Position numbers and translations under genes: made by a program. A DNA stretch of 64,000 nt from Brachionus manjavacas (lineage: Eukaryota; Rotifera; Eurotatoria; Ploima; Brachionidae). Where the stretch lies: positions 6,865,501 through 6,929,500 of the forward strand of contig JAHQIY010000005.1 of NCBI GenBank assembly GCA_019054805.1, read 5' to 3'. The notes beneath the pieces were generated by a model. It was not told the origin of the DNA. It was given only the letters and a program-made list of their open reading frames with translations, and did not search any database. Positions 36,901-64,000 of this stretch are shown here, piece after piece. Within the stretch, counting starts at the first letter, position 1, and every line of letters begins with the position of its first letter.

Positions 36901-39900
36901 AAAAAATAAAATTATTTTATTCACTTGTTTTAGTGGTTTGTAGTCTTTGCAAAAAACTTCAATGTCATCTACACGAAAAAATTGAGAGCCTGCTAAGAAA
37001 GTCTTTGATTCTCTAGAGCCGTATTCAAACATTTGATCACCGTAGGTAAAACCAAGGGTTGATTCATTTTTGGTGTTCAAATTAGACAAATTTTTTATTT
37101 TAATATCACCATTTCCAAAGCATGGACCAAAATTTTTATCACAATAAATGGCGTTTTTTTCATCCGAGCATTTAATAATTTTACTGTTATTTGAATCATT
37201 GTTTAATCCAAATAGAAATGCGTAGGGATCGCTTTTGAACTGATTGGCATCTGAAGACCATGTGGAACCAGTGAAACCACCAAAAATTCTCAAAGTATCG
37301 GTGCATATAATAGTCAATGTGTTTGATTGCAAATCACATTTTTGGTGAAACGAGCAAGAATCAAATCCGTCTCTACTGGCACGATACAATAACTTCCAAG
37401 TCTGAAAATTACCATTTAATTGCATTGAAACCAATTGGCTTTTCATTAATTTCTTAAACTGCTCATCGCTAATAATTTCAGATTCAATCAGACTGTTTTT
37501 GAATGCTTGTTCTGTGAAAAAATTTAAAGTTAATTCATTTTTTTGAAGTGTTATTTTTTTCAAATTTTTTAATCATTTAAATATTGTCTTATTTATTTTT
37601 TTTTAATTAATAAATTCCTGAAAACAAAAAAAAATAAAATTTTTTTTAATGATTTTTATTTCTTAAATTTATTATTTAAATTAAAAATAAGCTTACTTTT
37701 GTTGGGTATTATGACCGGCTCTAAAACATTCTGAATTGCTTGTGTGTTCTAAAACATTAATAAATGATGAGAAAAATTTTTAGCTAATTCTAATTCAAAT
37801 TCAGCAAAAAATTTAATAACCATTAATAGCCTGATTTGAAATTTTTTTGTAATTTTAATAAGAAAACTAATATTCAACCTTTTGTACTGATCGTTTAGTG
37901 GTCGGTCATTAGAAAAAACTTCTAATCAAAAAAACTAGATAATTTAAAAAACCGACTTAATGTCACTTTTCTTTTAAACGTTTGTGTGCTTTAATCAAAA
38001 ATGTTCCTCAACCAGATTATAAAAATTTTGAGAAAAAAAAAAAACTGTATTTTAGAGGAATAAGTAAAAAATTAATAAAAATTTGAATTTTATAAGACAA
38101 TTTTTGAAAAAAAACTTAACACTTTATTAATTTTTTTACACAATTTACGTAAGATTACACAATACAATGTAAATTACACATTATTTATTGTTATTTTTAA
38201 AATCATTTTTTGAAAACAAAAAAATATGGGTACTTTCCTAATATTTACATTACTTAAAATATATGACAGAAAATTACATATTTTTACATTAAATTGTGAA
38301 ATCTTACGTAAATTGTGTAAAAAAATTAATAAAGTGTTAAGTTTTTTTTCAAAAATTGTCTTATAAAATTTAAATTTTTATTAATTTTTTACTTATTCCT
38401 CTAAAATACAGTTTTTTTTTGGCCGTAAGCGTTTTTGACGAAACTTACTTGAACTAGTGTAATTTTACGTAAAATAACATAAGATTATGTCATCTTACCC
38501 ATTATACAGTTTAAACACTGTAATAATCCAATTTAATTTACAAATCTATTTTATTAACTGGTTTTTAAAAATATTTTTTATTATTTTTATTAAGATAAAC
38601 TCTTTAAATTGAAATGATATTTTGAATTGATTATCAACTTCAAGAGACCAAATTAGTATTCCAAAAAATGTTACATTGGATTTTTTAACCACTTAATACT
38701 TTTCTAATTTTAAATTATTTAAATTTAAAAAAAAAATTTTGGTGAATTTAAATTTTTTTAGATTTCGTTTTTGTGTGTAGGAATTGTGAGGTTCGTTTCT
38801 TTTCAATACAGAAAAACTTGAATAACTTTTTTTACTAAAAGAGATAATTTAATTCTATAAAATGCTTAATTATAAGCAAATTTGCTAGATACAGTAAAAT
38901 AAGTCTGCAAAATACTCTGCAATTTTCTGCATTTTGCACACTATTAAAAAGTATTCTAATCAACTGTGCAAGTACATTGCAGAGTTTTTGCAGACACGTA
39001 TTTTCGGATTAAGCAAAGTTGCTTAAACTTTAAGCATTTTACAGAACTAAATTATTTTTTGAAATAAAAAAGTTTTAAAAATTTTCATAATTGAAAAGAT
39101 CGAATTGAAATGAACTTCACTACCCATTGTGTGTAAAGAAAATAAAGAAAATTTTTTGTCACCTGTTGTAAATATTCTTACCTTTAGTTTGTCTTTGGTT
39201 TGAGTTATTTTATGGATAATATCGTTTTTAGAACACTGAGCTATTTGTAAAGAAAGTGTCTGTCTTTCGACCTCTTCATTTAGACGCTTTATTTCTATAT
39301 CGTTTCTTCTAATTGACTCATTTGCTTCATTTTGGCTGCTATGATTAATACCAATGGCTTTGCTGATTTCCATTTTTTGTTTGGCTATTTCTTTTATAAT
39401 CTCCATGTAATTAGCAACTATTTGATCCTTGATGCTTTTCAGAGATTGAATTTTTTGCTTACGACAGTCCTCTGTTCTATTAAGATCTGTTTGTTTGGAT
39501 ATTTGATCGTTTCGACTCACTTCATTTTTGGCTTCTAACGAATTCATTTCATTTCTATAATTTTGAATATTTTTCTCGCAGCAAGATATTTGATTGTTCA
39601 GTTTTTCAACATCACCTTCTTTTTGTCTTATTTCATTTTGTATTTTATCTCTCTCCGAACGATAGAGCCATGACGAATACCATCTATTATGGCTATCAAA
39701 TTCATCTTTTAGTTGACTTATTTTTGATTTTACATCACCCACTCTTGACTTTGATGATGAAATTGACGTATTTTCCGAGTCGATCAACACTCTCAGCTGT
39801 GACACTCGTGTATTGCTATTTTCAATGCAATTTTTCAACGTTACCAAGTTTGATTCTAATTGATGAATCTTTGACTCATTTTGTATTAGACTACTGTTCA

Positions 39901-41350: not shown

Positions 41351-42498
41351 TTTAATCTAGACCTAAATGATTCAAAAATCAAACAAAAAAAAAAGATATT
41401 TTTAGTTTTCAACTTGACTTAACTGAAATATTAAAATCATTTCAATAAAGTAAATTTAATTTATAGTAAAAACCATATAAAAAAAAAGATTGATTTATTA
41501 TTGATGTAAAAGTTTTTCTAATTGAATGTATGAAAAAAAATAAAATTTTATTTGTTGTTGGGAATTATTCCCATCAAAAATCAAATTAGCTTAGTTTTTT
41601 TAATTTGGCTTTTATTTTAAATTAAAATTTATTCTTTACTTTAAGAATGCATATCAAAGAGCATAAAAAAAAAAAATTCGGTCAATATTGATAGCAAGTC
41701 AAAGCTGTGAAATAAATAATAATTTTAATTTACTTTTGGCAAAAAAAATTGGATCATAATATTTTAAATGCGCAATTAAATTTCGTTGCAGATTTTTACA
41801 TATTTGTTAAATTTCAAAGCTTAATCTAAAATTTTTGAAAAAAGATTGTAATTCATAAAAGATGCATTGAAATTTAATTGCGCATTTAAATTATTTTTAT
41901 CTAATTTCTCAGTTTTAATCAACGGGTTCAAAAAAACAATTTTTTAAAAAGGATTAATGTAGAGTGGATTTTTTTCTTAAAATTTTCATGCATGGTACTT
42001 GTCGGACAGAGCTAACGACAATCAAAATATTTAAGAATAATTTTACGAAAATTAATTCTTTAGATTGTAAGTTTAACCATTCTTTTATCTAAAATAATAA
42101 TGATCTAATTTATTTTAAGCAAATTTTAGCCTAAAACATGTTAAAGCAAAAAACTAGAAAGAAACATTTAATAACTAGAATAGAAAATTAATTAAATGCT
42201 AATTTATTCTTTAAAATTTCTCCAATTAAATGCTTTAAAAAAATTGTAAAATTAATGTTTTTGATTTGGATCATAGTTGGGAAATTTTCCCAAATTATTA
42301 TTTTATTACATTATTTATTTATTTAGTTATTTCATTATTTTATTTTGCTTTTATTTGCACACGACTTAACTGAATTCTTTCTTTTTTAAAAAAGTTCTTA
42401 TCATTTTAGTTTATAATTTACAAATTTTTTTAAAATTTTTTTTTTTTTTATTTCCGCATTTATTAATTACTAATTAATTTAAAAAAAATATTTTCTAG
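41351..42498. other. Intergenic region between divergent genes
   Basis: 1.15 kb between the ATG of the minus-strand TLDc gene and the plus-strand coiled-coil gene, so it probably holds both promoters. Only A/T-rich sequence is visible, with a small palindrome at 41,764-41,891 (ttaaatgcgcaattaaattt and its reverse complement). No TATA box can be singled out in such A/T-rich DNA. Confidence 0.5.
41764..41891. repeat. 128-base palindromic element in the divergent promoter region
   Basis: About 24-base arms (ttaaatgcgcaattaaatttc and gaaatttaattgcgcatttaa) separated by about 75 bases. Confidence 0.55.
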
Positions 42499-46595: not shown

Positions 46596-49500
46596 ATGGA
46601 TGATAAGGCGCAGTTGGCATTGGAGCTGACGAGGAAAAAAATTGAAGAAAACCGCCATTTGCTCTTGGAAAAAAATGCTGAAATGACCGAATTAAGCTGT
46701 AGACTAGAAGATGTTCAAAAGCAGATAAAACACTTGAAATCGTTTAATACCGACGATGCTCAACTTGAATCAATGCGACGCACGGACAGTTTGCGCGTTC
46801 AATTCCAAAATGAACAAACTAAATTCGATTTTTTCAAACAGGTGAACATTTTAAACCAAAATTTTAGTCTGAGTGGTCGCCAATTTTCCAATAAACCTAC
46901 GCAAAATCTTCTATACTGTTTGATAGACATATCAGACAGAGCAAAATTGCCTAAAGCTTGCTTGTACGAAAGCTCTCCGGACACTGCCTCAAGTGAGACA
47001 ATCGATCAGTTTGTAGCAAAGCTTAAGAACTTTGTTTACATAGACGAAAATAGCAGTGAAATAAGCCAAGCTAAATTGAACGAAATGTGCAACAAAATTG
47101 GTGAACTGAAACAAATGCAGATGCCAACTTGTATTTTGTTTGATCACAAGAATAAAAGCTTGATCAATTCAACAATAGATGAGAAAACGCTTGTTTTGTA
47201 TCGACATGATGATAACTTTCTGGTGCTTCAAGTCAACATGGAAAAGGTGTGTGTGGTTGGCAAAGCGCATGACACAGTCAATAATTTGATATGCGAACAA
47301 GTGTTGTATGAGCTGTGTATTATAAAGCTAAAGGAACGATGTGGCTCGGCAGTGGGCGAGTGCAGCATGAAAATGTTGTACCAAGCATTGCAGAAATTCA
47401 AGAAAGATTTTGTGGAGAATAAAGACCAATGTCAGAAGAGGTTCTTGGACGAAATGAATGTAGCCAAGAATGAAAATGTACTCGAAAGTCTAATCCAGTC
47501 ACAAGTGACGCTTCTTGTCGAACTGTTGGCTCAAGTGGACGAGTACACTGTCGAACATGAGTCCGTCAAACAAGACATCGATTTGTTTAGGGAGAGATTT
47601 GTTCAGAGAGTTGAGATTTTTTTGTTTGACGAGTGCGAAAAGAGGAAAAAAATGGCACAGACAAAACTCAAAATGGACACTAGCGAGGGCGATTCGCTAG
47701 AGAACGAAATAACAGCCAAGCAAAACGAGATTAACAAATTGAACAGTTTGTTGAGTAAGAAAAACGACCATTTGACCGCGAAGAACAAAGAAATTGAACT
47801 TAAGAGAGAACAATTGAAATTACTTGTGCACAGCCATGGCAAACAGGAGAAAGAGATTAATGACGAAATGGAACGTTTGAAACAAGAACTTGTCGAAAAG
47901 GAAGAAGAAATGAAAAATTCTGAAGTAAATCAAAATAATGAGGCCTTGAGAGTTGACGAGCTGAGAAATGAAATTCAAAACAAACAAGTTGAAATAGATG
48001 AATTGAACTCAAAAAAGAAAATATTGGAAGAAAAGAGAGACGAACTGAACAATTCAATCGAAGTAGAGATCAAAGAAAAAGCCTCTCTTCAAAAAGAAAA
48101 AATCGAGTGTCAAGAAAATAAAAAATATTTAGACGAACAACTAAATGAATTGAAAAGCGAAAGTTCTAAGCTTGAAAAATTGATTCAATTTACACAAGCC
48201 GTTTACAATCAATTGTTGGCCGATCAAAGTTTGTTCAAAAAACGAGCTGATCTAAACAGGGCGCTACACTCAGACTTGTCATTTTTTGAATTGTACAAAT
48301 ATCTTGTCAATCAGGATGAATTGAAGCAATTTCAAGAACCCATTGTTGAAAGACTTGCCAAGGAAAATGTTTACAAACGGCGCCAATTGTTGGTCAACTG
48401 TTTGGACAAGATTTTGGCCGAGTCTGTTTTGACCGGCTACACAGACAACAAAAATGGACACTCTATAATTGAATTATGTGCAATAAACGTCAATTTTGAC
48501 CAAATTGAGCCATTAATCAACAGACACATTGAACAAGAAATTGCAAAAAATGAACTGTTTATGCTTGACGCGAATAAACGAGTTCTATGCGTCAAGGATA
48601 GCACACTTAAGATGAAACATTTGCTTGAAATCAGCAGTAATCAAATGTCAAATGAATTAATGAGATTAATTCAGAAGCGTATGAGAAAAAAATTCATAAT
48701 TAAAAATAGTGATAGCTTAGATTCAAAAAATGGACATTTGACAAGCAAAACAGAGGTAATGCAATCAGAAATTAATGAGAAAAAATTTCAAACTTTGGGT
48801 GATTTAAATGCCAAAAGTGTTTGTCACTTGCTTGAATTGGATTTTGAGAGTGTTAAAAAGTGTTTGTTGCAAACAATTAGAATAATTGCCGGGCAAAATG
48901 TTTTTTTTAATGAGAAAAAAGAGCTGAGACAATGTGGAGTCAATTTGGCTATAGTGGCCGGTGGGGATGTTGTGCTGCCGATTGGCGCCATCATAGACAC
49001 GTCTGGCTCAGCCGAAGCGCTCAATTTTGAAAACGAACAGGCTCATGGGTACGCAGGAACGAGCAGGCAGGACAAATGCTGCGAAGGCGAGCCTGGTGTA
49101 GATGGCCATGATGGCTTTTGTGGCGAGAACGCCGGTCACATTTACATAAAAGCAGCCAATTTGGTACAAAATTTGGACCGAATTGGCGAAATCAGGATAA
49201 ATGGAGGCAAAGGCGGCCACGGCCAAATGGGCGGAAGTGGACAAAACGGTGGTCGTGGCCAGGACACTGGCGATGCCCAAGCTGAAAATTTATCGCCTTG
49301 TTTGTTCTCGGCCGGATTTGTGATCGCTTTTGCTCGTATGCCCGGCCTTGATCCTGAAACAGGCGAGTTTAGTCGCACTGGTGAACTGAGTGGCAAGGGT
49401 GGAGATGCGGGCAAGACTGGCCTAGGCGGCATGGGTGGTCATGCCGGTGAATTTTTAATCAAAGATAGCAAAAGTTGGATAGCAAACAAACAAGAAAACA

Positions 49501-51980
49501 AAGAGCTCGTCGAATCAAGTCAAAATCTAAAGAGTCTAATTAGAAAATTAGTAGATGAGAAGAAAATTGTGTGTAGTCAAGGTACGGCTGGTCAAAATGG
49601 AGATTTTAAAAAAGTCAAGGGTGGAAAGGCCGGCACAGCGGGCACTTATGGTCGAGATCATGTTATTTATGTTGATGGCTTGTTTTCATCTCGTCAAGAT
49701 CTAAAAGGAGACTACAGCAATTATTTGCTAGAAAAGCCTTTGGTTGAAAATGGCACATTGGACTTTGACGAGTCAAAGTATGCTGCCAAAAGTATAATCC
49801 AAGACCCAGACGCTTACGCCACTCGCTCAAAGTCCTTTACTGCATTTAGCGGCGCATTAGCAGTTACGGCTGTGATCGGCGCCGGCTTTCTCCTGGCTCC
49901 GATAATAGCTGCAGCCATGGCCGTAGTGCCTGTCATTGGCTTAGCTGCATGGGCAACTGGTCTGGTCATAGCCGGTAGTGGCGTTCTCGCTGGCATTGCT
50001 GGTCTAGCTGGCGCTGCTCTAGTCTTCTCTACTAAAACCTTGTCCGGTCTTGATTACAAAATAGGCGTTAAAAAAGAAATGAAAATGAAAAATAGACAGC
50101 AGATAGTGTTCAATAATCGGTATTGTTGTGTGCCGCCTTTGAGAGACGGCCAAAGTTGTAGTCAAAATTTGAGACGAGGCGACAAGCGCAGTCAAAAAGA
50201 AGACGGCACGGACAGTTGTCTAAGGGAGGAGAGTGAACGTGAAGAAGCCAGTAGGGCAAATGAAACAGCGAATGAATTTGCTGATGCGTATGAGCGTGCT
50301 GCCATGGACCACAAGACACTCTCGCTCAGAACAGACTCGACCAACAACGAGTCAATCAGACTGGCCAACGAAGAGCTCAAGCAACTGGCTGCTCAAATTG
50401 AACAACATCAAAATTCCATGGAGACAATTGTTGAACAAATGACTCAATTGAGCCAAAGAATAAATCAATGTGACATGAATGTAAGTGAACATGAGAAACG
50501 AGTGGCACAGATAGATCAGCAAATGAATTCTATAAGTGACATGTTAACTAATGAACAGGGTGAAATGTCACAAGTTCAAAGAAAAATGCTGCAAAATGTT
50601 GATTTGTATTTGAATTCAGTGGACAAACAAGTGTCGGCTCGCATTCAGCTTCAATTGTCAAATATTCACTTGAACAGCAGAGCTGAGCTGGCCAAAAGTT
50701 TGAATCAAGTGTTTGCTAGTATAAAAGAAGAATTGGGCGCTGAGGCCCAACAACTCGTAGACGAAAAGATGAGCTTGCAAAAAGACATCGAAGTGGTACT
50801 CAAGCAAAAAGAACTGAGAGAACAAGAAATTGAAGCTGTTCGAGACAAAGAGCTCAATGCCATCAAGAGTCAAATGAACACGCAAAAAGAGCTTGCCGAA
50901 CTCGAAGAGTTGAGAAAAAAATTGAAAGACGAACAGCAAACAAATACTGAAAATAATGTCACCGATGAAGTAATGGTAATGAAAGATTTCAAAAGAGAAG
51001 AGTCTGACAACAAATTAACACTCGATGATCAAGCTAATAGTTTAAATTTAGATTTTGATCAAATTAAATTTTTTACAAGAAAAGTCGATCTCAAATTATA
51101 TGCTAGCTGTTTTTTTTCTACAGATAAATTTCCAAACTTTCACCATCTGGTGATTCAAATTACTCAAAACACAAAAAAAGAACGCAATTTAATTATTGGA
51201 AAACTAGAATTTCTGATAAACGCCTATTCGACTGGTTTCTATCAGAGGCTTGTGGACCAAAATAAAAAAGCATCCACAAAGGACAAACTAAAAAGTCTTG
51301 TGCAAAACGATCCAACTAAAGAATTAGAAAGCTCAAAATTATTTGATCAAATAGATAAAAATCCATACAGTTTGGACTTGGTGTATGAAAAAGTTGCCAC
51401 ACTTTATTTCAAGCACACATCACAGCCTCAACAATGTGAAAGTTTCAACTTGACAAATTGTGAAACCTATTTAAAGCATATTTCACTCGACCAGCACTAT
51501 GAATCAACTGAAAATGACTGTTTAACTCAATTGGAAAAAGATTTGGCTGTGTTTTCACAAAGAATATATGACAAAAAAATTTCAAAAGAAAAAGTGCTCA
51601 CAGTTATTAAACTAGTCCAAGACTATATGGAGCAAATTGAGCAACACATTTGCATGTTTAAAGTGACAGCACTGGCCGTTATCGAGGGCCGCATCAACTA
51701 TTTCTATGATTCGATTATAACTTACATAAATAATAGCCTTGACAGCGGTGAATGCGAAACTATATGGCCTCTACTGGATGATTTGATCAAACTAATCGAG
51801 CTGTTGAGACTTCAATTTGACAAAATAAATAAGACAAATGTTTGGCCTGAGTGGAATTTGATGAAAAATCAAAAATATTTACTCGACAAGCTAGTGCAAC
51901 AAGTCGAGTATGTGAAAGCAAGGAAAAAAGAGATCGACCACTGGATACAAAACGATCAAATTAAATTAGGAATTTTTAAG
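46596..51980 (+). CDS. Exon 1 of the SecA-like gene: coiled coils, Gly-rich region, hydrophobic segment
   Basis: It starts MDDKAQLALELTRKKIEENR with a short coiled coil. Residues about 90-300 look globular (LLYCLIDISDRAKLPKACLY, VVGKAHDTVNNLICEQVL). A long heptad region follows. Residues about 770-815 have GVNLAIVAGGDVVLPIGAII, like strands leading into the glycine-rich GEPGVDGHDGFCGENAG, INGGKGGHGQMGGSGQNGG and GKGGDAGKTGLGGMGGHAGE. Next is a hydrophobic Ala/Gly segment near 1080-1150 (from ALAVTAVIGAGFLLAPIIAA), enough for two or three membrane helices. A further coiled coil and a helical domain follow to ...WIQNDQIKLGIFK at the donor. Reading on past the donor reaches a stop at 52,019. Confidence 0.85.
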
Positions 51981-54900
51981 GTGAGTTTTTTGTCTTTTAA
52001 CTATTTGAAAATGTATTGATGAAAATTTAAATTTTTATTTAAAAAGTTTTATTTGAGACAAAATTATAATTTGTTTGGTAAATAAACAACACCATTTGAA
52101 CTATCATTATTTATTTGTTGTATATCTGTACCGAGCTTAGGCTCTTTGAGAATAGAAAAATAAAGAATTTTGAACCTGTTTAATAAATTTTTTTTCGGTT
52201 TCAGTTAAACACAGCATAAATTTAAAAATTTGACAAATTATTTTCTTTAAGTCTAAAGCCCGTTCTAAAAAATGCATCAGCTGATTTAAAGCATGTATCA
52301 CCTAGTTTTTAACTAGTCTGTAATTCTGCAAATTGGAAAGCCTTCAAAATTTAATTGCAGAGCTTCAAGATTTAATTTTTTTACACATATAAAATTTTGG
52401 ACGATACAGACTATTAGCTCATTCATTTTGTAAAACGGGTTTTAGACCTAAAGAAAGAAAGCTATTAAAATTTGGAATTTTTGTTTTTGTTTCTTGATTC
52501 AAAATTCACAATGCCCAGTTTCACTTAAATTCATAAAGATCCAAAAAAAAATATTATATTTTAATCCACAGCCTTTTTTCTATTTTATCTACCAAAATTT
52601 TGTGTGGTCTAGATTAAATTTTACGCTTCAAAAACTTAAAACTTGAGTTCATTGTGAAATTCTAATATTCATGGGGAACTAGGTTTTATAATTTGGGACA
52701 CCTTACGAGAGTTGGAAATTTTTGGAAAGAAGCCAAAAAAACTTTTTGGCTATTCTAATGAAAAAAAAAAGTAAATAATAATAAATAGAAAATATGTATC
52801 CAATGTTGAAATGACATGGAAAAATGCGATGTTTTAAAATATTTTTTTAATATTATATTGCAAGCATTTTCATATTTGAAATTAATCTCTTTAGTGAAAT
52901 AGAATGAGTTTAATTTTTATTTGGAGATTTGAAAAAAAAATATTGAATATTCTTAATTTATTTATTTATTTATTTGTTTATCTGTAATGAGCTAATGATC
53001 CTTCAGAATAAAATTATATGAAAAAATTAAATAAAGTAAAATAAAATTAAAGAAAAGAAAAAATGATGAAAATTAAATCATTCAGATTAAGATTTATTGT
53101 TATTATTAAAATTTATATTCAATTAATAAAAAGCTGGGTCTAGTCGGCTATCATGCAAATAATTCTTGTAATAATTCGTTTTTTTTTTTAATTTTAAGGA
53201 CCTGTAGAAATAGCATTTACCCTTTTCTTGTTGACTGGGTATTAACCTAAATAATACCAAATAATAAAAATTTAAGAAAATTAAAATTAATTTTTCATCC
53301 TTCAAGTGTCTGACTTTGAGCAACATAGATTCATCATTTTGCACAGTTTACCTCCTCCTCCAATAAATTTATATATCTACATCGATAGTGTCTATATTTA
53401 GACAATATCTATATTTGATTGAAAGAATAAAATTCAATTGATAAATAATCAAAAAAAATGACTCTTCGACCACTTCGATTAAAAAAAAAAACTAACAGAA
53501 CATAAAATGAATAATAATTTGTTTAATAATAAAAAAAAATAAAATAACATTTTTAATTTGTTTCTCTTTAGAAAATTACTCAATCACTAATTTTTGTCTC
53601 ATAAAAAAGAACCAAATTCTAACTTTAATCATTTTTTTAAACATTTTTTTGTCTTTTATTTGTAATTCTTTTATTTATTTTTATTTTTTTTTAAGTATGA
53701 ACTAAAAACATTCGGCTGAAAGGAAGGACTAAGATCCATTCCAAACTACCAGGGTTTATCCCTGACCATTTTTTTGTAAATAAATAAATAATGAAAGAAA
53801 AAAAGTATATAATGTCCATACATAATTTATCGATATTTCTATAGATCGATTGGTATCGATACCATGCACTAGACACAATTAAAACCTAAATAGAAAGAAG
53901 TCTGGAATTGGTTGATATTTTTTTATTTTAGATTCAATTGATTGTTGAGCTTTTGAAGCCAAAGTTAATCGATTTGCTGGTGGCCAAGTGTGATGGACAA
54001 GAATTTGAAATTTTCAAAAACGACTTGATTAAAGCGAGTATTTGCACATCGCAAGAAAAAGACGAATACCTGGTCAAGTGTAAACTAAAACATTCGATAG
54101 CCAGAAACAACTGTGTCAGCAAGCAAGGTTTTATGACCAAGTATCGTCTGTTGCTTAGCATGGCTCAGCAGGATAAGTTTGACTTTATCAATATTGCTGA
54201 ACATGCCAAAAATGTTTACATAAACAGCGACAAATTAGAAGAGACCGTTTTGGCTATGTTCAAAGAATACGACTATCTTTTAAACGAAGATAAATCGCTT
54301 TCGTTTGAACAAATCAAGTCTGTGTATCTGGCGCTGGCCCGTCTAGAAAATCCTAGTTTAACTAACAAGCAATCGATTGTCAAAGTTTTTGCTCAAATCG
54401 AAATTAATTTAAGTGAAAAAATTGAGGACAAAATTCTAAATAACTTAGCCAAAGAGTTTGCTCAGTCCGAGCTGCGAGATCAACTAAACGCTGTCTTAAA
54501 TCAACGAATTAAGGACGTTGATGGAAAAATTGATGAAATTATGCTCAGAAAATGTGCTTTTTATGAACAAATATTCAAATTATCTAACGAAAAAGATAAT
54601 GACAAGACAAAAAAGGCCACGATTGTGTTGACATATTGTAATGGTGGCTTGGGTGCAGGCGAGTGTCAACAGTTGGACTCGGCTAGTAAGCAATTATTGA
54701 AAAAGTGTCAGTGTGACGCGAATGATGAACACAACGCTTTTGAGCAAATTATTTTTAAATTAAGTGAATATCAGTATGACATGTTGGCTATTTCATTACA
54801 ACTGAATGATCAAACAATTGATCAAAATGAACAGAAATGCCTGCACACTAAGCTCAAAGATTTGGTTGGTAAATTTAAAAAGATTTGCACAGATATTCTG

Positions 54901-57900
54901 AATGTGAAGTCAAATAGTCAAATGATTAATGCACTTAAGATTTATGCTAATAAACTAGAAGAGAATAAGCTCAATGAGGAAAGAAGAAAAAAATTGTCTA
55001 AATTTTGCTCGATCGGCAAAGAGTCAAATTTTCTAAAACAATTGATTGAATTACACAAAGATGTTGAAAGTGCTGATTTGAAAAAATTAGTTAACCATGT
55101 GCTCATGTCTAGTTTAAGCGAACAATTTGTTGTCAACACTTTTGTTCTTGGGCTGCTTATTTTTTATAAATCGTCAAGAAAAACAAACAATGAGGACTTT
55201 GTGTACAAGCTAATTGATCTTGTTGACATTGAACAATCGCTTAATCAAAACAAATACAATGAACTTCTTGACTATTTGCAAAAATTGAGATTAATTCCAA
55301 AAAAATACACCATCAAACTAATTGAGCGAATCGAATTTAAACTAAAATGTTTAACAGTCGATTTAGTCGATTTATCAAACGAGCTAAGTCGTTCAAATAG
55401 TCTTGTTGACAAAAATGCCCAATTTGTTTTGAGTGTAACGGCCGATCTGAGTCAAAGCATTGGCCCAGTCACCCAACAAAACCTCACTTACTTAAGCTCT
55501 TTTCACAAAATGTTGAACAATTACAAAATACAGCTAAGTGAACTTGAGAATGCACGTAGCTCTGATCAATGCATAATTGACAAGCTACGCGATCAATTTA
55601 TTGACAGCATTGATCTTGTGTTCACTGATTACTTTAGAAACAAAGACGCACAGCTAGCTGATGAGACAAATTTTGAAAAAATTTTCAATTCAATCAAGAA
55701 AAGCTCACATGAACAGACTCTAAGCCAGTTTATACACTATTTGAACATACGGCTCAATCTGAAAATAGGGACTGGTCAAGTGAAAGCGTTGGACAGAATT
55801 TTGATTGAATCTGAGCTAAGAGATTGGCCACACAACAAGCTAAACTCGTTCATGATCGAACAAGCCTTACAAATGCTAACCAAATCCTATATGATCGACT
55901 TGGTTCAAAAGACTCAATCAATTCAAAGTCAAATAGAGAGCAAACAGCAACAATTGAACACACTACTGATTAAGCTAGTTGATATTTACAAAAGTAAATT
56001 GGACACTGAAAACAAACTGCTTGTAAAAGCAAGAGTTAACTTTTTGCTTGAATTAATTCACAAATATTTAAAAGTAAAAAATATTCAAAATTTGGAGGCA
56101 ATTGTGAATGAAATGGTCAATCTAGCTGATAGTAAAGAGAGCGCAAGCGATATTGAGCTCTATTTGATTGAAAAAGTTAATTCAATTGGCTTTGAGGGCC
56201 TTGACAACGAGCAAAGGCAACAGTTGGCTGTTGGTGAACAAGCAACTATTGACCATTTGTTTGAAGCTCTTTTTGGTTCCAGTGACATATCTAAAGTGTG
56301 TCATTTTAGAAAAATGATTGATCAAACACGTACTAAAAAAGCAGCCTTGTCAAACACATTGATCGACAAAATACAACAAATTACACGCTTTATTCAGAAT
56401 TTTTATTTTGTTCAGCATCAAAGTGAAATAGATCAGTTGACCAAACTATGGATCAACACCATTAACAAATACATATATTCAGAGCCAAGTGGACACAAAG
56501 ACCTGATTGAACAAAAAGCTCAATTGCACAATTTGATGCGAGCCAAATGCTACAAAGTAAACAACTATTCGGCTTTTATTGACCGACCACAATATTCAAT
56601 CAAACTGGTCGATTTGAGTGAAGAGACAAATTTTGTTGTGGACAAGTGTCAAATGCTTTTCGATGACATTTGCCTCTCTCAACAAAAAACGAACAAAATT
56701 TCTGCATATTATCAATTGATTAACTCTAATTTGGAACAAATCGAACTGGATTTGTTCACTTTAGAACAATTTGAAATAAAAAACAAGTTAAATGACGTCA
56801 TGTGCTTTGAATTAGATCAAGAGTTGAAAGAGATTAGATCTCGGCGAGAACAAGTTATACAGCAGATATGCCAAAATGATCATCAATTAACAAATGAGCA
56901 AGTTAGACTGCTCGATAGAAAGAGTTTGAATGAATTTAGCTCTAAGTTTGAACAGGATTTTAATAAAATTCTGATGACTTGTGACGACCAAAATTCATTG
57001 ATAAGTAAAAAACTGAGATCAGTGTACACTTATGTTTCAAGCAGAAAACACCGTCACACATTCAAGGCTTATATTTATTTGAATTATAGAGCTGTTTTTG
57101 ACGACACAAATGTCTCTAGACTAACCAGTGACTATTTGAACAAAATTGGCGAATTTGTTCTGGCCGATTGGCATTCACTGACAATAAAATCTGATTTTAT
57201 CAACCTTCAATTGTCTACACAAGACTTTGATTGTTTAGATTTGAGTGACTTAACAAAAAAAATTTACTATTTTCTCATCTATTTGTCTAGTAGTGATGTA
57301 AATAAAGTCAATCTAATAAGGTTTTGTGAATATCTGCTATCCAAAATTGACCAGCCTGATTCCATTAAATGTTTTAACATGATGATTGAATGGATAATTG
57401 ATAGTTCAGTTTTTGAACTGAAGACTTCTAGAATTTTGGCGCAACGAATAGCTGAAAAATTGACCGAGTCAATTTGTGACCAAGAAGAAGACCGTAATTA
57501 TTCAAAAAGTGTCATTGAATTTTTGCTTGATTTGAGTCAAACTGACCAGAAAAGCTCAACATTAATTGTAAACTTTGTTCAAAAATTTGGCATTGATTTT
57601 TTCAAAAAATTTTTCCTCAGTAAAATCGAAGTAAAATTGTTTACAAGCATCAATTTAGCTGAGTATTTGAGTGTACTGTGCAATAGCGATGTGACCATTT
57701 GGCAACATGTTCTATTTGATCAATTTATCAGCTTATTTTGTCAATCTGGAGCACAAACAGAAAAAAATTCAATTTTAAAAAATGATCAATATTTGACTGA
57801 AAGTCTAAATTTAATGCTAGACTCATCCAGTAGTGAAAAGTGCCAAAAATTCTACTTGAATATTAAAAAAAAATTGATTGAAAGTAAAAAAGAAATAAAA

Positions 57901-60900
57901 GATTTGGAAATGATAAAAAAATTTAAAGACAATGTGCTAAATTGTGTCAATTTGATGGCAAAATTTGAGCTGGTGGAATTTTTTGACGCAGTAAAAAACA
58001 AATTGAGTGCAAAAGCAATTGATTTGAATGTTTGCACAGAGATACTTAATTTTGGAATGATGATGGGAGAATGCGTTGGCGAATTGACCTTGGTCATTAA
58101 CTCTTCAAGTCCGTGCTTGTACAAAAGAGTGCTAATATTGACCATTGGTCATTTGATGGTTAAGCTATTCAATATTGAAGACAAAGAAAAAAGAGCAAAT
58201 TCAATTATGGCTCGTGTTTATAAACACGTGCAAAACGATAGTGAACGTTTATTGAGCATCATAGCTCTCAAACTTGATTCCAATCTCAAGTCTGGACTAA
58301 GATACGAATCGAGTGAGGTCGACACTCTAAACGATAATCTAAGGTATTTATAGATTTTCAAATAATTACACTCAGCTCCTACATAAATCACAACGGTTTT
58401 AAAATTCAAAGTTTTATCAGGTTTAAGCTATCATTATGTCCGCTTTGACTGAAAACATTTAAGATTTTTAATTTGAGCATGTTTTTGTTATTTTTCAAAA
58501 AAATTTAGTCTTTGAAGAAATACAATAAAAATTTATTTATTAATTTTGGCATCGTGAAATTCAAGTACAAATTGTACAAAAATTGATCCTTTTTTGATTA
58601 ATTAAAATAAAAGTTAATTAAATTTACGAAAAAAAATACTGCAACAAATGCCAACATGCTTTGTTGCACCTTTTTTACTTAAAATAATTTTACCCATGTT
58701 TTAATAACATAAAAAATAAAATATCATTAAGAATTAAATTGATTATTCTTTTTTTTTGTAAAAACCTTCTATAATTCGAATAAATAAATGGTATGTTATT
58801 TATTTATTTATTTATTCAATTAACGTTTCAATTCAATTATTCTGCGGTTATTGGTGCAAAAAATATAAAATTATAATAAAAAATTAAATATAAGAATATA
58901 AAAAGAGACAAATTTAAAAAAGAGAAATTAAGTCAATGAAAATTAAGATAAATTTGTACTAAAAACTTATGCCAAATTAGATAAAGTTCGTAGTTAAAAA
59001 AAAATATGATGATTGAAAAGCTGGTTCAAAATTAAGAGAAATAGTTTTTGCATAATATGCAGAATAAAATAAAGTTTTAAATTTTTTAAAAAATCAATTA
59101 ATTATTCTTAAACCTAAAATTTAGAATGTTTTTATTAGTATGTTAAGAAGTCATTTTCCATTTAATTTATTCATGTTAATCATTTCAAAACATGATTAAA
59201 TTTTATTTTTTTTATTAAATTAAGAGTTAGGGGAGAACCCCGAACATGATTAAATAGAGTCACTTATCCCGTATTCATCATCAAAAGAACTTTGTATAGT
59301 CTTGCTTACATTTTTTTGTTTGTTTTTTAGATAATTTTTAAAAAAGAAGCATCAGATAACCTTCAACTTTAATAAACTTAAACTTACAAATTATCTTTTT
59401 TCTCTTTAATTTGTTTAATTATTTAAAATTAATGAACTTGTTTAGACAACTTTTTTTTATTTTTTTTTAAATATTTTTTTTTTATTTTGTTAAAATTAAA
59501 TGAATTTGGGCGATTTTTGACTCTAATTTTTTATTTGTAGAGATTGGAGAACGGTTTGATTTAGGAACAGTTTTGTAGTTTGCAATAAAATGCATAGTTT
59601 AATCAAGTATATTTTAATTTTGTGCATTTTACTGAAAATTGCAGAGTTTTTGCAGAGCTTGGAATTCTTTTGTACAAGTTTGTTCAATATTGTACTCTTG
59701 ACAGTATTATTTTTTCACATTTAGAAAAAAAAAATATATAAAGTTTTGATTGATCCCATAATAAAGTTAATTGACACAAGAATATTCTAATGACAAATCT
59801 TCAATTTTATGGAACTGACTGAATTTATTGCTTGATTGTATATAGATAATTAATCATCTCTTAAATTCTAATTTCAATTCACATGATTTTTTCCTAAAAA
59901 AAAAACAATTTACCGGACTGTTTTAAATAAAACTTTGAGGAAAAAAAAATTGAAAATTTTATTAAATTTTTTTTTGTTTTGTTAGCTTGCTGTTCAAAGT
60001 TTATGACTATCAACCCAAGTGTATTGATCGGTTAAATGGTTTGCCCATATTGAAGTGGTCGTTCATTTTGCGAGTTGAACAAATCAAGTACGAACTGAAC
60101 ACAAACGACTCTCAAATAGTGTCCGATTTGCATTTAATTGAGAAGCTTCGCGGCCTCGAAATAACACAGCGTTTTATTCAAATTGTTAAATCGGTCAAAA
60201 TCGAAGACTTGTTACTCAAGTTTATTGTGACTAAATTCAGAAAAAACGAATGGGACTTGAATGACAAAGTGCTGACTCTAATCGAAACAAACAAAAATGC
60301 ATCTGAATGGATTGAGGTGATAAAGAAATTTGACTTGGAGTCAAAGTCAAAAGCGCTGACTCGTGCTGAGCTAATAGACGAAATGAAGAGACTTGAGGCC
60401 AATGGTGAAATTAACAGTTATGTAAAAAAATTAATAGAGAGAAATGAAACTGGAAAGTGTATAATTGAACTTTGTCTCGATAAGCTGGACACAGTGTACA
60501 AGAATGGCTCAAATTTGTTTTCTAGTGTGAAAAATAAAATTGAAGAGTACGAAAAAAGTGAGATTAGTGAATGGACAAAATTGTACAAACAGGAGAAAAA
60601 AAATAATCTAGAATCTCTTAATTGTGTTCATGTTGTTGAGCTTGTGGCTGTGTTGTGTCGATCGGTTGAGCTTGTGTACAAATACGAGGCGCGAGATGTG
60701 CAAAAAATAGCATTGCTTTTGTTCATGGACAGCATTGTGTTCAATTTTAGTGGTCGTTTGGCGAACATATCTACAGGCGAGGGAAAATCTCTGATAACTA
60801 TTTGGACGGCCATAGCCTATATTCTTGTTAAAGGCGGCAATGTGGACATATTGACCAGTTCGGAGATTTTGGCCGAACGAGATTCGCTTGAGAGTAGAGA

Positions 60901-63900
60901 AATGTTCGCCATGTTTGATATAAGTGTGACAAACAACTGCGACTCGTTGGCCATTGCAGACGAAAATGTGCGCAAGCAACGATACTCGAGCAGTATGGTT
61001 GTGTACGGCGACATTGGCAGCTTTCAGCGGGACATTTTGCTGAGCAAATACTTTGAAAAAGAAATTCGCACAGACCTAGCCGGTTGTTTGATTATAGACG
61101 AAGTGGACAGCATGTGCATAGACAACATTTGCAACACATTGTACATATCTCATCAAATAGCCGACTTGACTTATATGAAGCATTTTTATTGTTTAATTTG
61201 GCATGCAGTTAATAATCAAGACACGCATGAGTACACAGAAGAAAATGTGCAAAGAGTAAAGACATATGTGCAAAGTTTAATGGCCAACGGTTATTTTAAC
61301 TATCCGTCTAATTTGCAAGATTTTGTAAATAGACGCTTGGAAGTGTGGATAAATAATGCCTATGTAGCCAAACATCATGCAGAAGAGGGAAATCACTACA
61401 GTGTGCTGTCAATGGGAAAAAAAAGTGGCGAGGCCATTATCAACGACCTGCAAACAGGAGTTGAACAGCTAAACACTCAGTGGAGCGATGGTCTACAACA
61501 ATTCATTCAATTAAAGCATTTGAATAGACTTGGCCAAGAGAGTCTTAAAGCCATATTTATGTCAAATTATGTTTTTTTCACACAATACAAAGGCAACATA
61601 TACGGCATGACTGGCACTCTGGGCGCTAGCATTGAACGCGATTTGCTCGCCAAAGCCTACGATCTGGACTTTTTCCAATTGCCACGATTCAAAAAAGAGC
61701 TAAATGTTAAACAAGACGATTGGCTTGTGACTAATAAATGTCAATGGCTAGAGAAAATAAACCACGATGTCGATTTGCATGTGTCCGAAAATCGTGTTGT
61801 GTCCATTGATGAACAAAATCAAGCAAAGAAGAAATTAAATCATGTAAACAAAGAAATAAATGAGCTTGAGTCAAAAATTGATGATTTGAAAAAAAAAGAT
61901 GACTTGAGCGAAGGTGACTTGTTGGCTTTGGAACAACAATTGAATTGTAAAAAATTGGAATTGCAAGATTTGAATGATACATGCGGTGAAATGGAGGCGG
62001 ACAGGAATCGCGCAGCACGCTGTGTACTCATTATATGCGAGAGCAAAAATCATGTGCATGACATAGTCAAAACGTTGTTCTACAAACACAAACACTTGTA
62101 TGAGTACACTGGCAAAGTGCAAGGCCTGACCAAAGTGATTGGTGTGCACAAGAGAAAAAGAGTTTGGATTGAACAAATGCGACCAGGAGACATTGTGGTC
62201 GCTACTAATGTGGCCGGTCGAGGCACTGACTTCAAGATTAGTCGACTGGCCGAGAGAAACGGCGGACTGCATGTGATCATTGCCTATTTGCCAGACAATG
62301 TTCGTGTCGAGATGCAAGCATTGGGCAGGAGTGGTCGCAAAGGTGACCGAGGAAGTGGCCGATTGATTGTGTACGATCAACGAGCAGCCAATTTGAACTC
62401 CACTCACTTAAGCATTCCAAGTCTCAAAGATGAACGTGATCTAAAGGAAGAGCAAAGACTTCATCACATACGTGTACAAATGATTCCAAGAGTGATGCTC
62501 GAACGAGACCTATTTGTTCGATTTGATTCACTTTACGAGAACAAAGTCAACGATCTACTCAAGTCCACTGCTAAGCCAGACTATCGTCACTTGCAAATTA
62601 AATCATTGCACAATCATTGGGCCTTTTGGCTTGATAAAATGTCGTCAACAATCAACAATGTGAACACAACAAATGAGCAAACGTTGAAAAAACAAGCTTT
62701 GGACCAGTTGGACATATTTGCTTGTGAAATTGAGAACAAACTAAAAAGAAATGATCACGCAATCCAAGCACTTATTGATGAGCCCGGCGAGTTAATCAAA
62801 CTGGCCATGCACAACATTCAAGAGGGAAATTTCAACGCAGCTATATTGAACTGCGATCATATCAATGAAAAGTATGCGCCCACTTTAACGCCATATTCGC
62901 ACTATTACAAAGCGATTGCACTTTTCGAACCAGTCAAGTCATTAAGTCGAAGCATCAAAGCGCTTAACTTTTTAGACAGTCAAAGCGAAATCACTTGCAC
63001 AAGTGAACAAGCTGACCAGGCTCTAAAATTGATGAAAAAAGCAGCCTTTTTGTTCGAATTGGAAATAGAAAAACTAAAAGCTCAAAGTGTCATTTTGGCA
63101 GATATCGAATCGAACAAATCAATTGTGGCTACACAAAATGATCTTTTTACAAAAAGTAACACCAACGAGTCATTAGCTTTGACTGTGCATCTGATGGCAG
63201 CCAGAATTGCAATCGGCCTTGACTTAAATCTCGACGAGCTAAAGCAAATATTTAAGCATTCAATACTTGGGGAAGACAAAATGAAAGAGTTGTTCGAGTT
63301 GGCTCTTGGTCATGACACTCTTCAGCCGTTCGTAAAAAAACAACGATTTAGCAAAAAAATTCAAATTAAAATCCATGTTGAAAAAACACAACAAAATAAA
63401 AGTGTTTTGGAAAAAATTCTCTCTAAACACTCAATTGGTGGTCAGTCAACTTTAATCGATGAGAGAACAATAGTTTTAGATAATTTGGAGTCAAATGTTA
63501 AATTTAGACTTGAAGAGGAGGAAATTAATTTTTCTTATGAAATTTATATTCAAGATAGAGTAAGTGAGTGTATGAAATGTTTAGACTTGCCCAATCGGTT
63601 CAGACCATACAAAAAACTGCTCATTAAAGCCATTCTAAACCAATCAGTTCGCTTGAAGACAGCTTCAGAACGAGCCAAAATTTGCCAATTGTTCAAACAA
63701 AAACTTGATGTATATTGCACTCAAAGAAACAAAATTCAACATTTTTTGCTCACTAATTTTGGCCAAGTGCAACAAATTTCCGATCAAATTCAGACTACAA
63801 AAAAAGACACCGACAGCCTTTTGCATTTGATAGAAAAAAATCAACAATCAAAACAATTGTTGTTTGGCTCATCATCAGCTCATCAATTTGTTCGACTTTT

Positions 63901-64000
63901 GTCACAATCAAAATTTTCATTCTTTCAACCAACGCCTGTTTCTACACTTGGACAGTTTAGAGACAAAATTTTGTTGAGCAATTCGGCGTCGGCTGAAAAA
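46596..64000 (+). CDS. Giant SecA-motor protein gene, three visible exons, open at the right edge
   Basis: Exons: 46,596-51,980 (1795 codons, donor AAG|gtgagt), 53,932-58,343 (acceptor ttttag, donor AAG|gtattt, phase 2) and 59,986 to beyond 64,000 (acceptor gttag). Phases fit and all 4,604 visible codons are open. Order: coiled coil, possible globular head, coiled coil (about residues 360-550), glycine-rich region (about 814-1020), hydrophobic Ala/Gly segment (about 1080-1150), coiled coil (about 1200-1460), a long helical part, and a SecA-type ATPase motor (about 3500-4100) with further helical sequence. SecA in bacteria and plastids drives proteins through membranes; animals normally lack it. 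Role here unknown: a membrane-attached translocase- or helicase-like motor is inference. The ATG at 46,596 is the first in frame; upstream exons cannot be excluded. Confidence 0.85.
49020..49680 (+). other. Glycine-rich region within the SecA-like protein
   Basis: Three clusters of Gly-rich, collagen-like but irregular sequence, separated by strand-like segments (HIYIKAANLVQNLDRIGEIR). Gly repeats of this kind often form turns in beta-helix or beta-roll folds; that is inference. Codons are much more G+C-rich than around them, which is forced by Gly and Ala. Confidence 0.65.
49834..50052 (+). other. Hydrophobic Ala/Gly segment, probable membrane hairpin
   Basis: About 70 residues with almost no charge, rich in Ala, Gly, Val and Ile (AMAVVPVIGLAAWATGLVIA and AGSGVLAGIAGLAGAALVF). 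It resembles membrane-inserting Gly/Ala helices and would anchor the protein in, or insert it into, a membrane. Confidence 0.65.
51981..53931 (+). other. Intron 1 of the SecA-like gene, with repeat fragments
   Basis: 1951 bases, gtgagt...ttttag. It contains a 209-base MITE (52,245-52,453), a solo end of the 33,136-34,516 element family (about 52,790-52,960) and short LINE-tail-like stretches (cttaggctctttgagaatag near 52,137; cagggtttatccctgaccat near 53,750; and a reversed one near 52,965-53,010). No coding sequence was recognised. Confidence 0.6.
52245..52453. repeat. 209-base MITE with 30-base inverted ends
   Basis: ctttaagtctaaagcccgtt... (52,245-52,274) and ...aacgggttttagacctaaag (52,424-52,453) are reverse complements with about four mismatches. 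It lies in intron 1 of the SecA-like gene. Confidence 0.7.
53932..58343 (+). CDS. Exon 2 of the SecA-like gene: long helical region
   Basis: 1470 codons without a stop, starting IQLIVELLKPKLIDLLVAKC after the ttttag acceptor and ending NDNLR at phase 2. It is almost wholly helix-forming, Leu/Asn/Lys/Asp-rich, without membrane spans. An EF-hand-like stretch near 54,262-54,330 (EYDYLLNEDKSLSFEQIKSV) lacks the canonical loop spacing and is probably not functional. I recognise no family. The length suggests alpha-solenoid or tethering structure rather than an enzyme. It is linked to exons 1 and 3 only by splice signals and phase, so transcript data would settle the join. Confidence 0.8.
58344..59985 (+). 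other. Intron 2 of the SecA-like gene
   Basis: 1642 bases, gtattt...gttag. It holds half of the hairpin found at 34.0-34.26 kb (about 58,635-58,672), a (ttat)n microsatellite (about 58,795-58,817) and a tgcagag-family fragment (about 59,570-59,670). No coding sequence was seen. Confidence 0.6.
59986..64000 (+). CDS. Exon 3 of the SecA-like gene: SecA-type DEAD motor, incomplete at the window edge
   Basis: 1338 open codons to the last base. SecA landmarks: ARDVQKIALLL (Q-motif side), ISTGEGKSL (Walker A, 60,770-60,793), LIIDEVDSMCID (Walker B, 61,088-61,123), YGMTGTLGAS (61,601-61,630), VVATNVAGRGTDFK (62,195-62,236) and GGLHVI..., QALGRSGRKGDRGSG (62,315-62,359, arginine finger region). Walker A to DEVD is 107 residues and DEVD to GMTGT about 169, close to bacterial SecA as I recall it, so the preprotein-binding insertion is probably present by size. 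A coiled coil is inserted before the second RecA-like part. After about 62,600 the sequence is helical without an obvious SecA tail zinc motif. ATP hydrolysis looks possible: all catalytic motifs are intact. Confidence 0.9.
61805..61985 (+). other. Coiled-coil insertion inside the SecA motor
   Basis: About 60 residues with heptads (AKKKLNHVNKEINELESKID ... CKKLELQDLND) lie between GMTGT and ATNVAGRGTD. The gap is about 199 residues here against roughly 130 in bacterial SecA as I recall, so this hairpin is an extra element on the second RecA-like domain. Confidence 0.6.

What the first reader, a model, noticed from the sequence alone, without database searches (positions are those of the whole stretch)
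59986..64000. SecA-type translocase motor in an intron-containing animal-like gene
Seen: GEGKS, DEVDS, GMTGT, ATNVAGRGTD and GRSGRKGD in SecA order and at near-SecA spacing, in a gene with GT..AG introns embedded in host-like DNA with metazoan-type transposons. Known: SecA is bacterial and plastid; animals have no SecA and mitochondria do not use one. Inference: an ancient or lateral acquisition of a SecA motor since given a eukaryotic context. TGEGK, DEVDS, GMTGT and GRSGR together are specific to SecA rather than to general DEAD helicases. This is the best candidate for an undescribed system.
Basis: partly seen in the sequence, partly recalled or inferred. Interest (0 to 1): 0.92.

Follow-up and report, generated by a model that had tools for sequence, protein, structure and literature searches.

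The report
Giant SecA-motor protein in a rotifer
A rotifer (microscopic animal) carries an intact, intron-containing gene for a 5,196-residue protein built around a bacterial-type SecA protein-threading motor; such animal SecA giants were partly described in 2013 but their job is unknown, and the same gene family has moved repeatedly between animals, ciliates and their intracellular bacteria.

Summary
In detail: all SecA motor motifs lie in one open frame, SecA models beat general helicase models, and the frame is exon 3 of a GT..AG-spliced gene on a 6.97-Mb contig of an animal genome (Brachionus-like rotifer, inferred). The gene is larger than reported: exons 46596-51980, 53932-58343 and 59986-65776 give 5,196 residues, colinear with a 5,037-residue Brachionus calyciflorus protein. 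The predicted motor (pTM 0.83) matches SecA with ATPase lobes, clamp, scaffold helix and finger, apparently without the wing domain. "Animals have no SecA, undescribed system" is wrong: giant eukaryotic-type secA genes were published in 2013 for insects, Daphnia, protists, Wolbachia and Amoebophilus; I also find them in bdelloids, nematodes, mussels and fishes. Trees reject single clades of animals, rotifers and bacteria, so the family crossed between domains repeatedly; this genome holds at least three lineages. Some relatives carry, behind the motor, a hydrophobic segment (38 of 153 long tails) or a toxin-like enzyme (13 of 232); neither was found here, where an N-terminal hydrophobic hairpin is conserved instead. 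Most likely an effector-less polypeptide-threading ATPase used in host-symbiont conflict; that function is inferred.

The parts
46596..51980 (+). Exon A (aa 1-1795): N-terminal coiled-coil-like region (read by eye), glycine-rich domain, hydrophobic hairpin; starts ATG GAT GAT
   Evidence: Frame without stops; donor AAG|GTGAGT at 51981; colinear with B. calyciflorus P0123 residues 1-1734; 27% identical over 1626 aa to the C8 paralogue's counterpart
48876..49685 (+). Glycine-rich domain (about aa 761-1030); with the hairpin the second most conserved part of the protein
   Evidence: 59-66% identity to P0123 in 100-aa bins from aa 800 to 1199; alignment; also traced in the unnamed giants P0131 and P0141; AF2 model inconclusive (pLDDT 48.9)
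49842..50024 (+). N-terminal hydrophobic hairpin (aa 1083-1143), candidate membrane-inserting element
   Evidence: Kyte-Doolittle 19-residue windows up to 2.51; also in P0123, P0124, P0125; no segment of the C8 counterpart passes the threshold
51981..53931 (+). Intron 1, phase 0, GTGAGT...TTTTAG, 23% GC
   Evidence: Junction GIFK|IQLIVELL matches P0123 GIFKIQLFEECL
53932..58343 (+). Exon B (aa 1796-3265), fast-evolving, no known domain
   Evidence: Colinear with P0123 residues 1732-3113; no Pfam family over its curated cut-off
58344..59985 (+). Intron 2, phase 2, GTATTT...TTGTTAG, 21% GC; absent from the C8 paralogue, which reads straight through
59986..64000 (+). Exon C, in-window part; continues to 65776 with the stop at 65777-65779 (outside the window)
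60446..62770 (+). SecA motor module (the folded piece is 60446-62995; SecA matches run to model residue 775)
60776..60790 (+). Walker A, GEGKS (first ATPase lobe)
61097..61111 (+). Walker B / motif II, DEVDS
61133..61570 (+). Preprotein-clamp-like domain (approximate limits, from the alignment to E. coli SecA and recalled domain limits)
   Evidence: PF01043 SecA_PP_bind 24.2 bits against cut-off 23.5; profile alignment
61604..61618 (+). Motif III, GMTGT
61805..61984 (+). Helical (coiled-coil-like) hairpin inserted before the second ATPase lobe
   Evidence: Helices 454-483 and 489-513; residues present in 9 of the 34 other rows of A1, none in 25
62201..62230 (+). Motif V, ATNVAGRGTD (second ATPase lobe)
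62324..62344 (+). Motif VI, GRSGRKG
62414..62563 (+). 50-residue scaffold-like helix (model 657-706)
62576..62770 (+). Two-helix-finger-like hairpin (model 711-775), directly after the scaffold helix, so no room for a wing domain
   Evidence: Only 4 residues separate the helices; alignment to SecA chains ends at model 775 = B. subtilis 777 (6itc) / E. coli 828 (6gox); domain limits of SecA recalled
39047..41356 (-). Divergent neighbouring ORF (769 aa, coiled-coil-like by eye); a related ORF lies divergently beside the C8 paralogue
   Evidence: 31.6% over 187 aa to C8:77470-78696; no match among the collected giants

Best explanation
A host (rotifer) gene for a 5,196-residue cytosolic or membrane-associated protein whose centre is a SecA-type ATP-driven polypeptide-threading motor, apparently without the wing domain. 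It belongs to the giant 'eukaryotic-type secA' family that circulates between animals, ciliates and obligate intracellular bacteria. In a recurring layout the motor is followed by a hydrophobic segment and a variable, in some members toxin-like, C-terminus; the motor presumably binds an unfolded chain in its clamp and pushes it, by ATP-driven closure and the two-helix finger, towards or across a membrane seeded by the hydrophobic part. In this lineage the C-terminal hydrophobic module and an enzyme were not found and an N-terminal hairpin is conserved, so the protein probably works as a non-toxic threading or unfolding ATPase in host-symbiont conflict. Shown: gene structure (by sequence and homology, no transcript), SecA homology and predicted fold, motif integrity, conservation in the genus, family spread, repeated transfer. 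Inferred: ATPase activity, a polypeptide substrate, membrane action, role in conflict.
Against: No expression, biochemical or localisation data. No toxin domain or channel partner was shown for this copy. The sequence after the second ATPase lobe is not convincingly alignable to canonical SecA by profile; scaffold and finger rest on a predicted model. In the whole family only 135 of 201 full modules match all five of my motif patterns; this is a lower bound, since at least some misses come from a too strict pattern (GTTGT in fishes). Toxin-like domains are a minority: 4 other relatives scanned in full (P0067, P0048, P0053, P0025) and the C8 C-terminus showed no such family over a cut-off. The link to conflict therefore rests on some relatives only.
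Confidence: 0.5

Rival explanations
1. A nucleic-acid helicase or sensor of the RIG-I/MDA5 kind that merely looks like SecA.
Confidence: 0.12
2. A decaying relic of a bacterial transfer without function.
For: Another copy in the genome, on C6, is fragmentary with an in-frame stop; no C-terminal effector or hydrophobic module was found here.
Against: 5,196 codons open over three exons; intact motifs; colinear orthologue in B. calyciflorus with conservation concentrated in the motor.
Confidence: 0.07
3. Vertical inheritance from the animal ancestor, with bacteria receiving copies from animals (the direction argued by Duplouy 2013 for Wolbachia).
For: Wolbachia and Rickettsia amblyommatis copies nest among insect ones; the 7 fish, gar and coelacanth rows form one clade (100).
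Against: Animals as one clade and rotifers as one clade are rejected; one rotifer genome holds copies nearest to Tetrahymena (C2) and to insect/Rickettsia types (C6, a fragment filling 20% of the columns). The direction of single transfers is not resolved here.
Confidence: 0.15
4. Bacterial contamination or misjoin.
For: The assembly does hold a bacterial contig (C21, 1.22 Mb) with a canonical SecA.
Against: Gene on a 6.97-Mb contig with TLDc genes and retrotransposon frames around it, GT..AG introns, relatives in B. plicatilis and B. calyciflorus.
Confidence: 0.01

Closest known systems
Giant eukaryotic-type secA genes (wBol1_1091/1092 of Wolbachia wBol1-b, mosquito, Harpegnathos and Daphnia homologues; Duplouy et al. 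2013, PMC3639933)
   Same: Giant proteins with a SecA domain that form a clade apart from bacterial SecA and occur in both animals and their intracellular bacteria (passages read; trees here)
   Different: [quoted passage not shown] 'rotifer' and 'Adineta' do not occur in its main text; no C-terminal hydrophobic module or enzyme was found in this copy
Canonical SecA / SecA2 translocase ATPase
   Same: ATPase lobes, clamp, scaffold helix and finger in the predicted fold; motifs
   Different: Far under the equivalog cut-offs (TIGR00963 102.1 against 800 bits); no wing domain by the model; helical insert; embedded in 5,196 residues; no SecY partner known in animal cytosol (recalled). M. tuberculosis SecA2 also lacks the wing domain (recalled)
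Phage WO eukaryotic association module secA (PMC5062602, PMC9203015)
   Same: SecA homologues said to be closer to invertebrates than to bacteria (passages read)
   Different: Carried by a prophage of Wolbachia and there classed as putative secretion of virulence factors; this one is chromosomal and spliced in the animal
Polymorphic toxins / Amoebophilus effectors with SecA-like domains (PMC3482391, PMC8195603)
   Same: SecA-like ATPase joined to toxin or effector domains in conflict proteins (passages read)
   Different: No toxin domain was found in this copy

Membership tests
SecA superfamily motor | SecA_DEAD domain over curated cut-off, above general DEAD models | tested here: met
   80.1 bits against cut-off 24.6; DEAD 22.7 bits, under its own cut-off 26
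SecA superfamily motor | Motifs Walker A, II, III, V, VI in order | tested here: met
SecA superfamily motor | Preprotein cross-linking (clamp) domain | tested here: met
   PF01043 24.2 bits, cut-off 23.5; aligned
SecA superfamily motor | P-loop_SecA (PF21090) over curated cut-off | tested here: not met
   26.3 bits against cut-off 27, E 6.6e-6: a near miss; over the cut-off in several relatives
SecA superfamily motor | Helical scaffold with two-helix finger | tested here: inconclusive
   Predicted helices 657-706, 711-731, 744-767 inside the SecA match to model residue 775; model only
Canonical SecA translocase | Equivalog score over NCBIfam cut-off | tested here: not met
   TIGR00963 102.1 against 800 bits; outside the canonical clade, 100/100
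Canonical SecA translocase | Helical wing domain | tested here: inconclusive
   Only 4 residues between scaffold helix and finger in the model, so it appears absent; no experimental structure
Canonical SecA translocase | Drives secretion through SecYEG | not testable with these tools
   No assay; no partner identified
Plastid SecA | Groups with cyanobacterial/plastid SecA | not tested
   No plastid SecA was placed in the trees
Giant eukaryotic-type secA | Clusters with animal/ciliate/symbiont giants apart from bacterial SecA | tested here: met
Giant eukaryotic-type secA | Giant length | tested here: met
   5,196 aa; family median 2,337.5 aa over 196 full-module proteins, which is limited by the searches' length filters; canonical median frame 919.5 aa over 86
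Polymorphic toxin | C-terminal toxin domain | tested here: not met
   No Pfam family over its cut-off in the last 759 residues; protein ends where P0123 ends
Polymorphic toxin | Adjacent immunity gene | tested here: inconclusive
   A divergent ORF accompanies two paralogues; no function known

The most novel reading that the evidence does not exclude
Animals own a standing class of cytosolic or membrane-bound SecA machines, repeatedly exchanged with intracellular bacteria. The rotifer copy in the window is a domesticated, effector-less version, conserved across the genus, that uses a SecA motor and its own N-terminal membrane hairpin to thread or unfold proteins against symbionts or their effectors: a protein-translocation motor in animal cells that is neither Sec61/BiP, TIM/TOM nor AAA+.
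Probability: 0.25. Interest if true: 0.85.

Novelty: new variant of a known kind. Interest (0 to 1): 0.6.

Why it matters
Text-book cell biology has no SecA in animals (recalled), yet SecA-type motor domains sit in giant genes of rotifers, arthropods, molluscs, nematodes and fishes. In the passages I read no function of an animal copy had been tested, and searches listed no paper whose title or abstract start does so. A conserved, spliced, effector-less member with an intact motor in a culturable animal makes the question testable: does an animal run a SecA engine, on what substrate and against whom? It also documents repeated exchange of very large genes between bacteria, ciliates and animals.

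Tried and rejected
Contamination or misjoin: rejected (long contig, introns, relatives in two Brachionus species). General DEAD/DEAH helicase: rejected on scores. Canonical SecA: rejected on cut-offs and tree. PADLOC models: no match at E 0.01 for the three frames. Rfam (gathering threshold) and tRNA scans of the window: nothing. Viral fold library: the best match has E 3.6e-9, weaker than SecA in the PDB, and the named top rows are mostly other helicases; a SecA-like viral protein is not excluded by that. A second structure prediction, of the glycine-rich domain with the hairpin, was inconclusive (pLDDT 48.9). The divergent neighbour ORF had no match among the collected giants. The last protein search, with the glycine-rich domain, found only 3 proteins at E 0.001 or less, two from B. 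plicatilis and the unnamed SecA giant P0136; its length filter shut out the longer P0131 and P0141, in which one search had found the domain. The C-terminal 'GHYxP..NNCLF' pattern in relatives looks like a rearranged cysteine-peptidase site (recalled likeness); it was only counted by pattern (15 of 236) and not pursued. I first took fish copies for changed motors because 11 miss my motif III pattern; one search shows GTTGT at that place in the 3 of them where the printout reaches it, so the pattern was too strict and I withdraw that. Papers opened by passage that concern ordinary SecA only: PMC9111745, PMC11521996, PMC8163844, PMC1800911.

Rows left out: in the 95-row tree P0098 was dropped as too short. 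For the 54-row tree I left out 28 of 76 giant rows (near-copies, long branches, partial rows) and 13 of 19 canonical rows by hand, so the AU tests are on that subset, and the groups tested were chosen after the first tree had been seen. The rotifer copies C2, C6 and C13 were in neither tree; C2 and C6 were placed in a quick tree only, and C13 had a branch of 5.06 and is unplaced. The subtelomere figure (4 of 5 loci within 90 kb of a contig end, bound p 4e-4) was formed after seeing the loci, and the loci are related, so it is a hint only. The count of loci rests on the Pfam search alone.
Full report
What is there. The window is G000:C5:6865501-6929500, on a 6.97-Mb contig of a 114-Mb, 61-contig assembly. 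Its surroundings are animal-like: two TLDc frames, a DM9-like frame (26.0 bits, just under the cut-off 26.2) and reverse transcriptase/integrase frames. The proteins nearest to the finding come from Brachionus plicatilis (P0002; 95% identity over 375 columns of the tree alignment) and B. calyciflorus, so I infer a Brachionus-complex rotifer. The frame from 59986 carries GEGKS, DEVDS, GMTGT, ATNVAGRGTD and GRSGRKGD in order.

Gene model. Three frames form one gene: 46596-51980, 53932-58343 and 59986-65776 (stop at 65777-65779), with introns 51981-53931 (GTGAGT..TTTTAG, phase 0) and 58344-59985 (GTATTT..GTTAG, phase 2). The spliced protein has 5,196 residues and no internal stop. Both junctions agree with homologues: GIFK|IQL with P0123 GIFKIQL; NLS|LLFK with P0002 NLSLMFK. 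P0123 (5,037 aa, B. calyciflorus) is colinear over all three exons. The C8 paralogue reads straight through the second junction, so that intron was gained or lost within the family. These homologues are predicted proteins; no transcript was available.

Constraint. Identity to P0123 per 100 residues is 79, 70, 76, 60, 61 and 69% from aa 3500 to 4099 (motor) and 59-66% from 800 to 1199 (glycine-rich domain and hairpin), against 23-40% over much of exon B and the C-terminus. All five motifs are present in 12 of 15 Brachionus-like rows, several of them unnamed; the 3 others lack one to three of them.

Family. Two searches gave 863 and 233 proteins at E 0.001 or less (120 listed each; in the first only the 7,991 best candidates were scored): bdelloids, mosquitoes, midges, ants, flea, bugs, beetle, Daphnia, nematodes, Mytilus, fishes, gar, coelacanth, Paramecium, Tetrahymena, and Rickettsia, Tisiphia, Wolbachia, Holosporaceae, Parachlamydia and others. 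Plasmids of two ciliate symbionts (Megaera, Bandiella) carry the type and group with it; a plasmid of Legionella geestiana has a match of the same strength as Bandiella's (not placed in a tree). In the genome-contig scan, 80 loci were kept of 574; by the family HMM only L043 (679.7 bits) and, less clearly, L057 (376.4, long branch) stand apart from the canonical range of 310 and below. Two of 18 viral-collection loci encode frames of about 3,556 codons nearest to a Tisiphia giant. My five motif patterns all match in 135 of 201 full modules; this is a lower bound.

History. In the 95-row tree the giants stand apart from 19 canonical SecAs (support 100); in the 54-row tree 100/100. In the 54-row tree the six monogonont rows are one clade (100/100), nested with bdelloid, Tisiphia and a gammaproteobacterial MAG row (100/98). 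Holding the 14 bacterial giants together costs 1520 log units (p 1e-12), the 14 rotifer rows 784 (p 2e-10), the 32 animal rows 1543 (p 7e-54); the groups were named after a first tree, so the p values are too small as stated, but the likelihood gaps are large. Some MAG rows may be mis-binned. In the same genome, C2 is 32% identical over 1991 and 43% over 1278 residues to a Tetrahymena thermophila protein and groups with Tetrahymena (SH-aLRT 100), while the fragment C6 groups with two unnamed rows and then with insect/Rickettsia types (SH-aLRT 100 each; 20% of columns filled). Thus at least three lineages (C5+C8, C2, C6) coexist; C13 is a fourth, very divergent one of uncertain place.

Architecture and mechanism. 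About a quarter of the collected giants with long tails have, 145-849 residues after the motor (mostly 370-850), a hydrophobic segment with a GEGxxD signature (38 of 153; 0.15 in shuffles). By the listings, 13 of 232 collected proteins carry nuclease or deaminase families; I confirmed six of them: AHH, LHH, WHH/colicin-DNase, Tox-HNH-EHHH, DNA/RNA non-specific endonuclease in Daphnia sinensis, OTT_1508 deaminase in Wolbachia. Four other relatives scanned in full showed none. The C8 paralogue keeps the C-terminal segment and a C-terminal region related over 64 residues to mosquito P0067, without a Pfam family over a cut-off. In the window gene the last 759 residues match no Pfam family over its cut-off; its main hydrophobic stretch lies at aa 1083-1143, with weaker ones at 782-800 and 4903-4923. 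The orthologue P0123 and the related P0124 show the N-terminal stretch alone; P0125 has it plus a weak C-terminal one. I therefore propose a threading motor whose membrane-seeding part is N-terminal and which has no effector. Motor chemistry, substrate and membrane action are inferences from SecA; a role in host-symbiont conflict is an inference from some relatives.

Prior knowledge. Duplouy et al. 2013 (PMC3639933; passages read) described giant eukaryotic secA genes in insects, Daphnia and protists and their presence in Wolbachia and Amoebophilus, and judged most annotated introns spurious. Phage WO papers list secA in the eukaryotic association module, with a putative role in secretion (PMC5062602, PMC9203015; passages). 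Polymorphic-toxin papers mention SecA-like domains in Amoebophilus effectors and giant actinobacterial toxins (PMC3482391, PMC8195603; passages). No paper on a rotifer member or on a tested function turned up in the listings of searches; the library holds only open-licence papers, and several of those searches were swamped by unrelated papers.

Verdict. Real, animal-encoded, and a SecA motor; not the first of its kind, but a distinct, spliced, apparently effector-less variant in a family whose function in animals is open.

Noticed in passing
L011 with L018 and L019 (G000:C2:1400695-1412091): A second SecA giant in the same rotifer genome whose nearest collected relative is a Tetrahymena thermophila protein (32% over 1991 aa, 43% over 1278 aa), far closer than any animal copy collected; one in-frame TAA separates two of its pieces.
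   Followed up: partly
L012 (G000:C13:66837-74978): A divergent SecA-like frame lacking a match in the clamp region and followed by a vWA-like 'MDATGSM' stretch (vWA reading recalled, not tested).
   Followed up: partly
L010, L015, L016 (G000:C8:55092-74532, minus strand): Paralogue of the window gene with the C-terminal hydrophobic module and a C-terminal region containing 'GHYEP..DNQCGP' and a CAA..CENC pattern, related over 64 aa to mosquito P0067; possibly peptidase- and deaminase-like, with no Pfam family over a cut-off.
   Followed up: partly
window 39047-41356 and L027 (C8:77470-78696): A related ORF lies divergently upstream of both the C5 and the C8 SecA giants (31.6% over 187 aa): a conserved neighbour of unknown function.
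   Followed up: partly
G000:C21 (1.22 Mb; L014): A contig in the rotifer assembly with a canonical 837-aa SecA frame and dense open frames: probably a bacterial symbiont or contaminant genome.
   Followed up: no
G000 contigs C5, C6, C8, C13 near their ends (L029-L032): Four of five SecA-giant loci lie within 90 kb of contig ends; the C6, C8 and C13 ends carry about 335-337-bp repeats (long arrays in C6 and C13, about three copies in C8), and the C5 end a 332-bp repeat containing TTAGGGTTAGGG. Suggests subtelomeric placement.
   Followed up: partly
P0053, P0057, P0065, P0067, P0048, P0180, P0201 and 8 others (15 of 236 rows): A GHYxP...NNCLF-like pattern near the C-terminus of SecA giants from mosquitoes, Adineta, Rickettsia, gar and Tetrahymena, which might be a rearranged cysteine-peptidase site.
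   Followed up: partly
window 35007-37572 (minus): Two TLDc-domain frames side by side, one with an EF-hand-like start.
   Followed up: no
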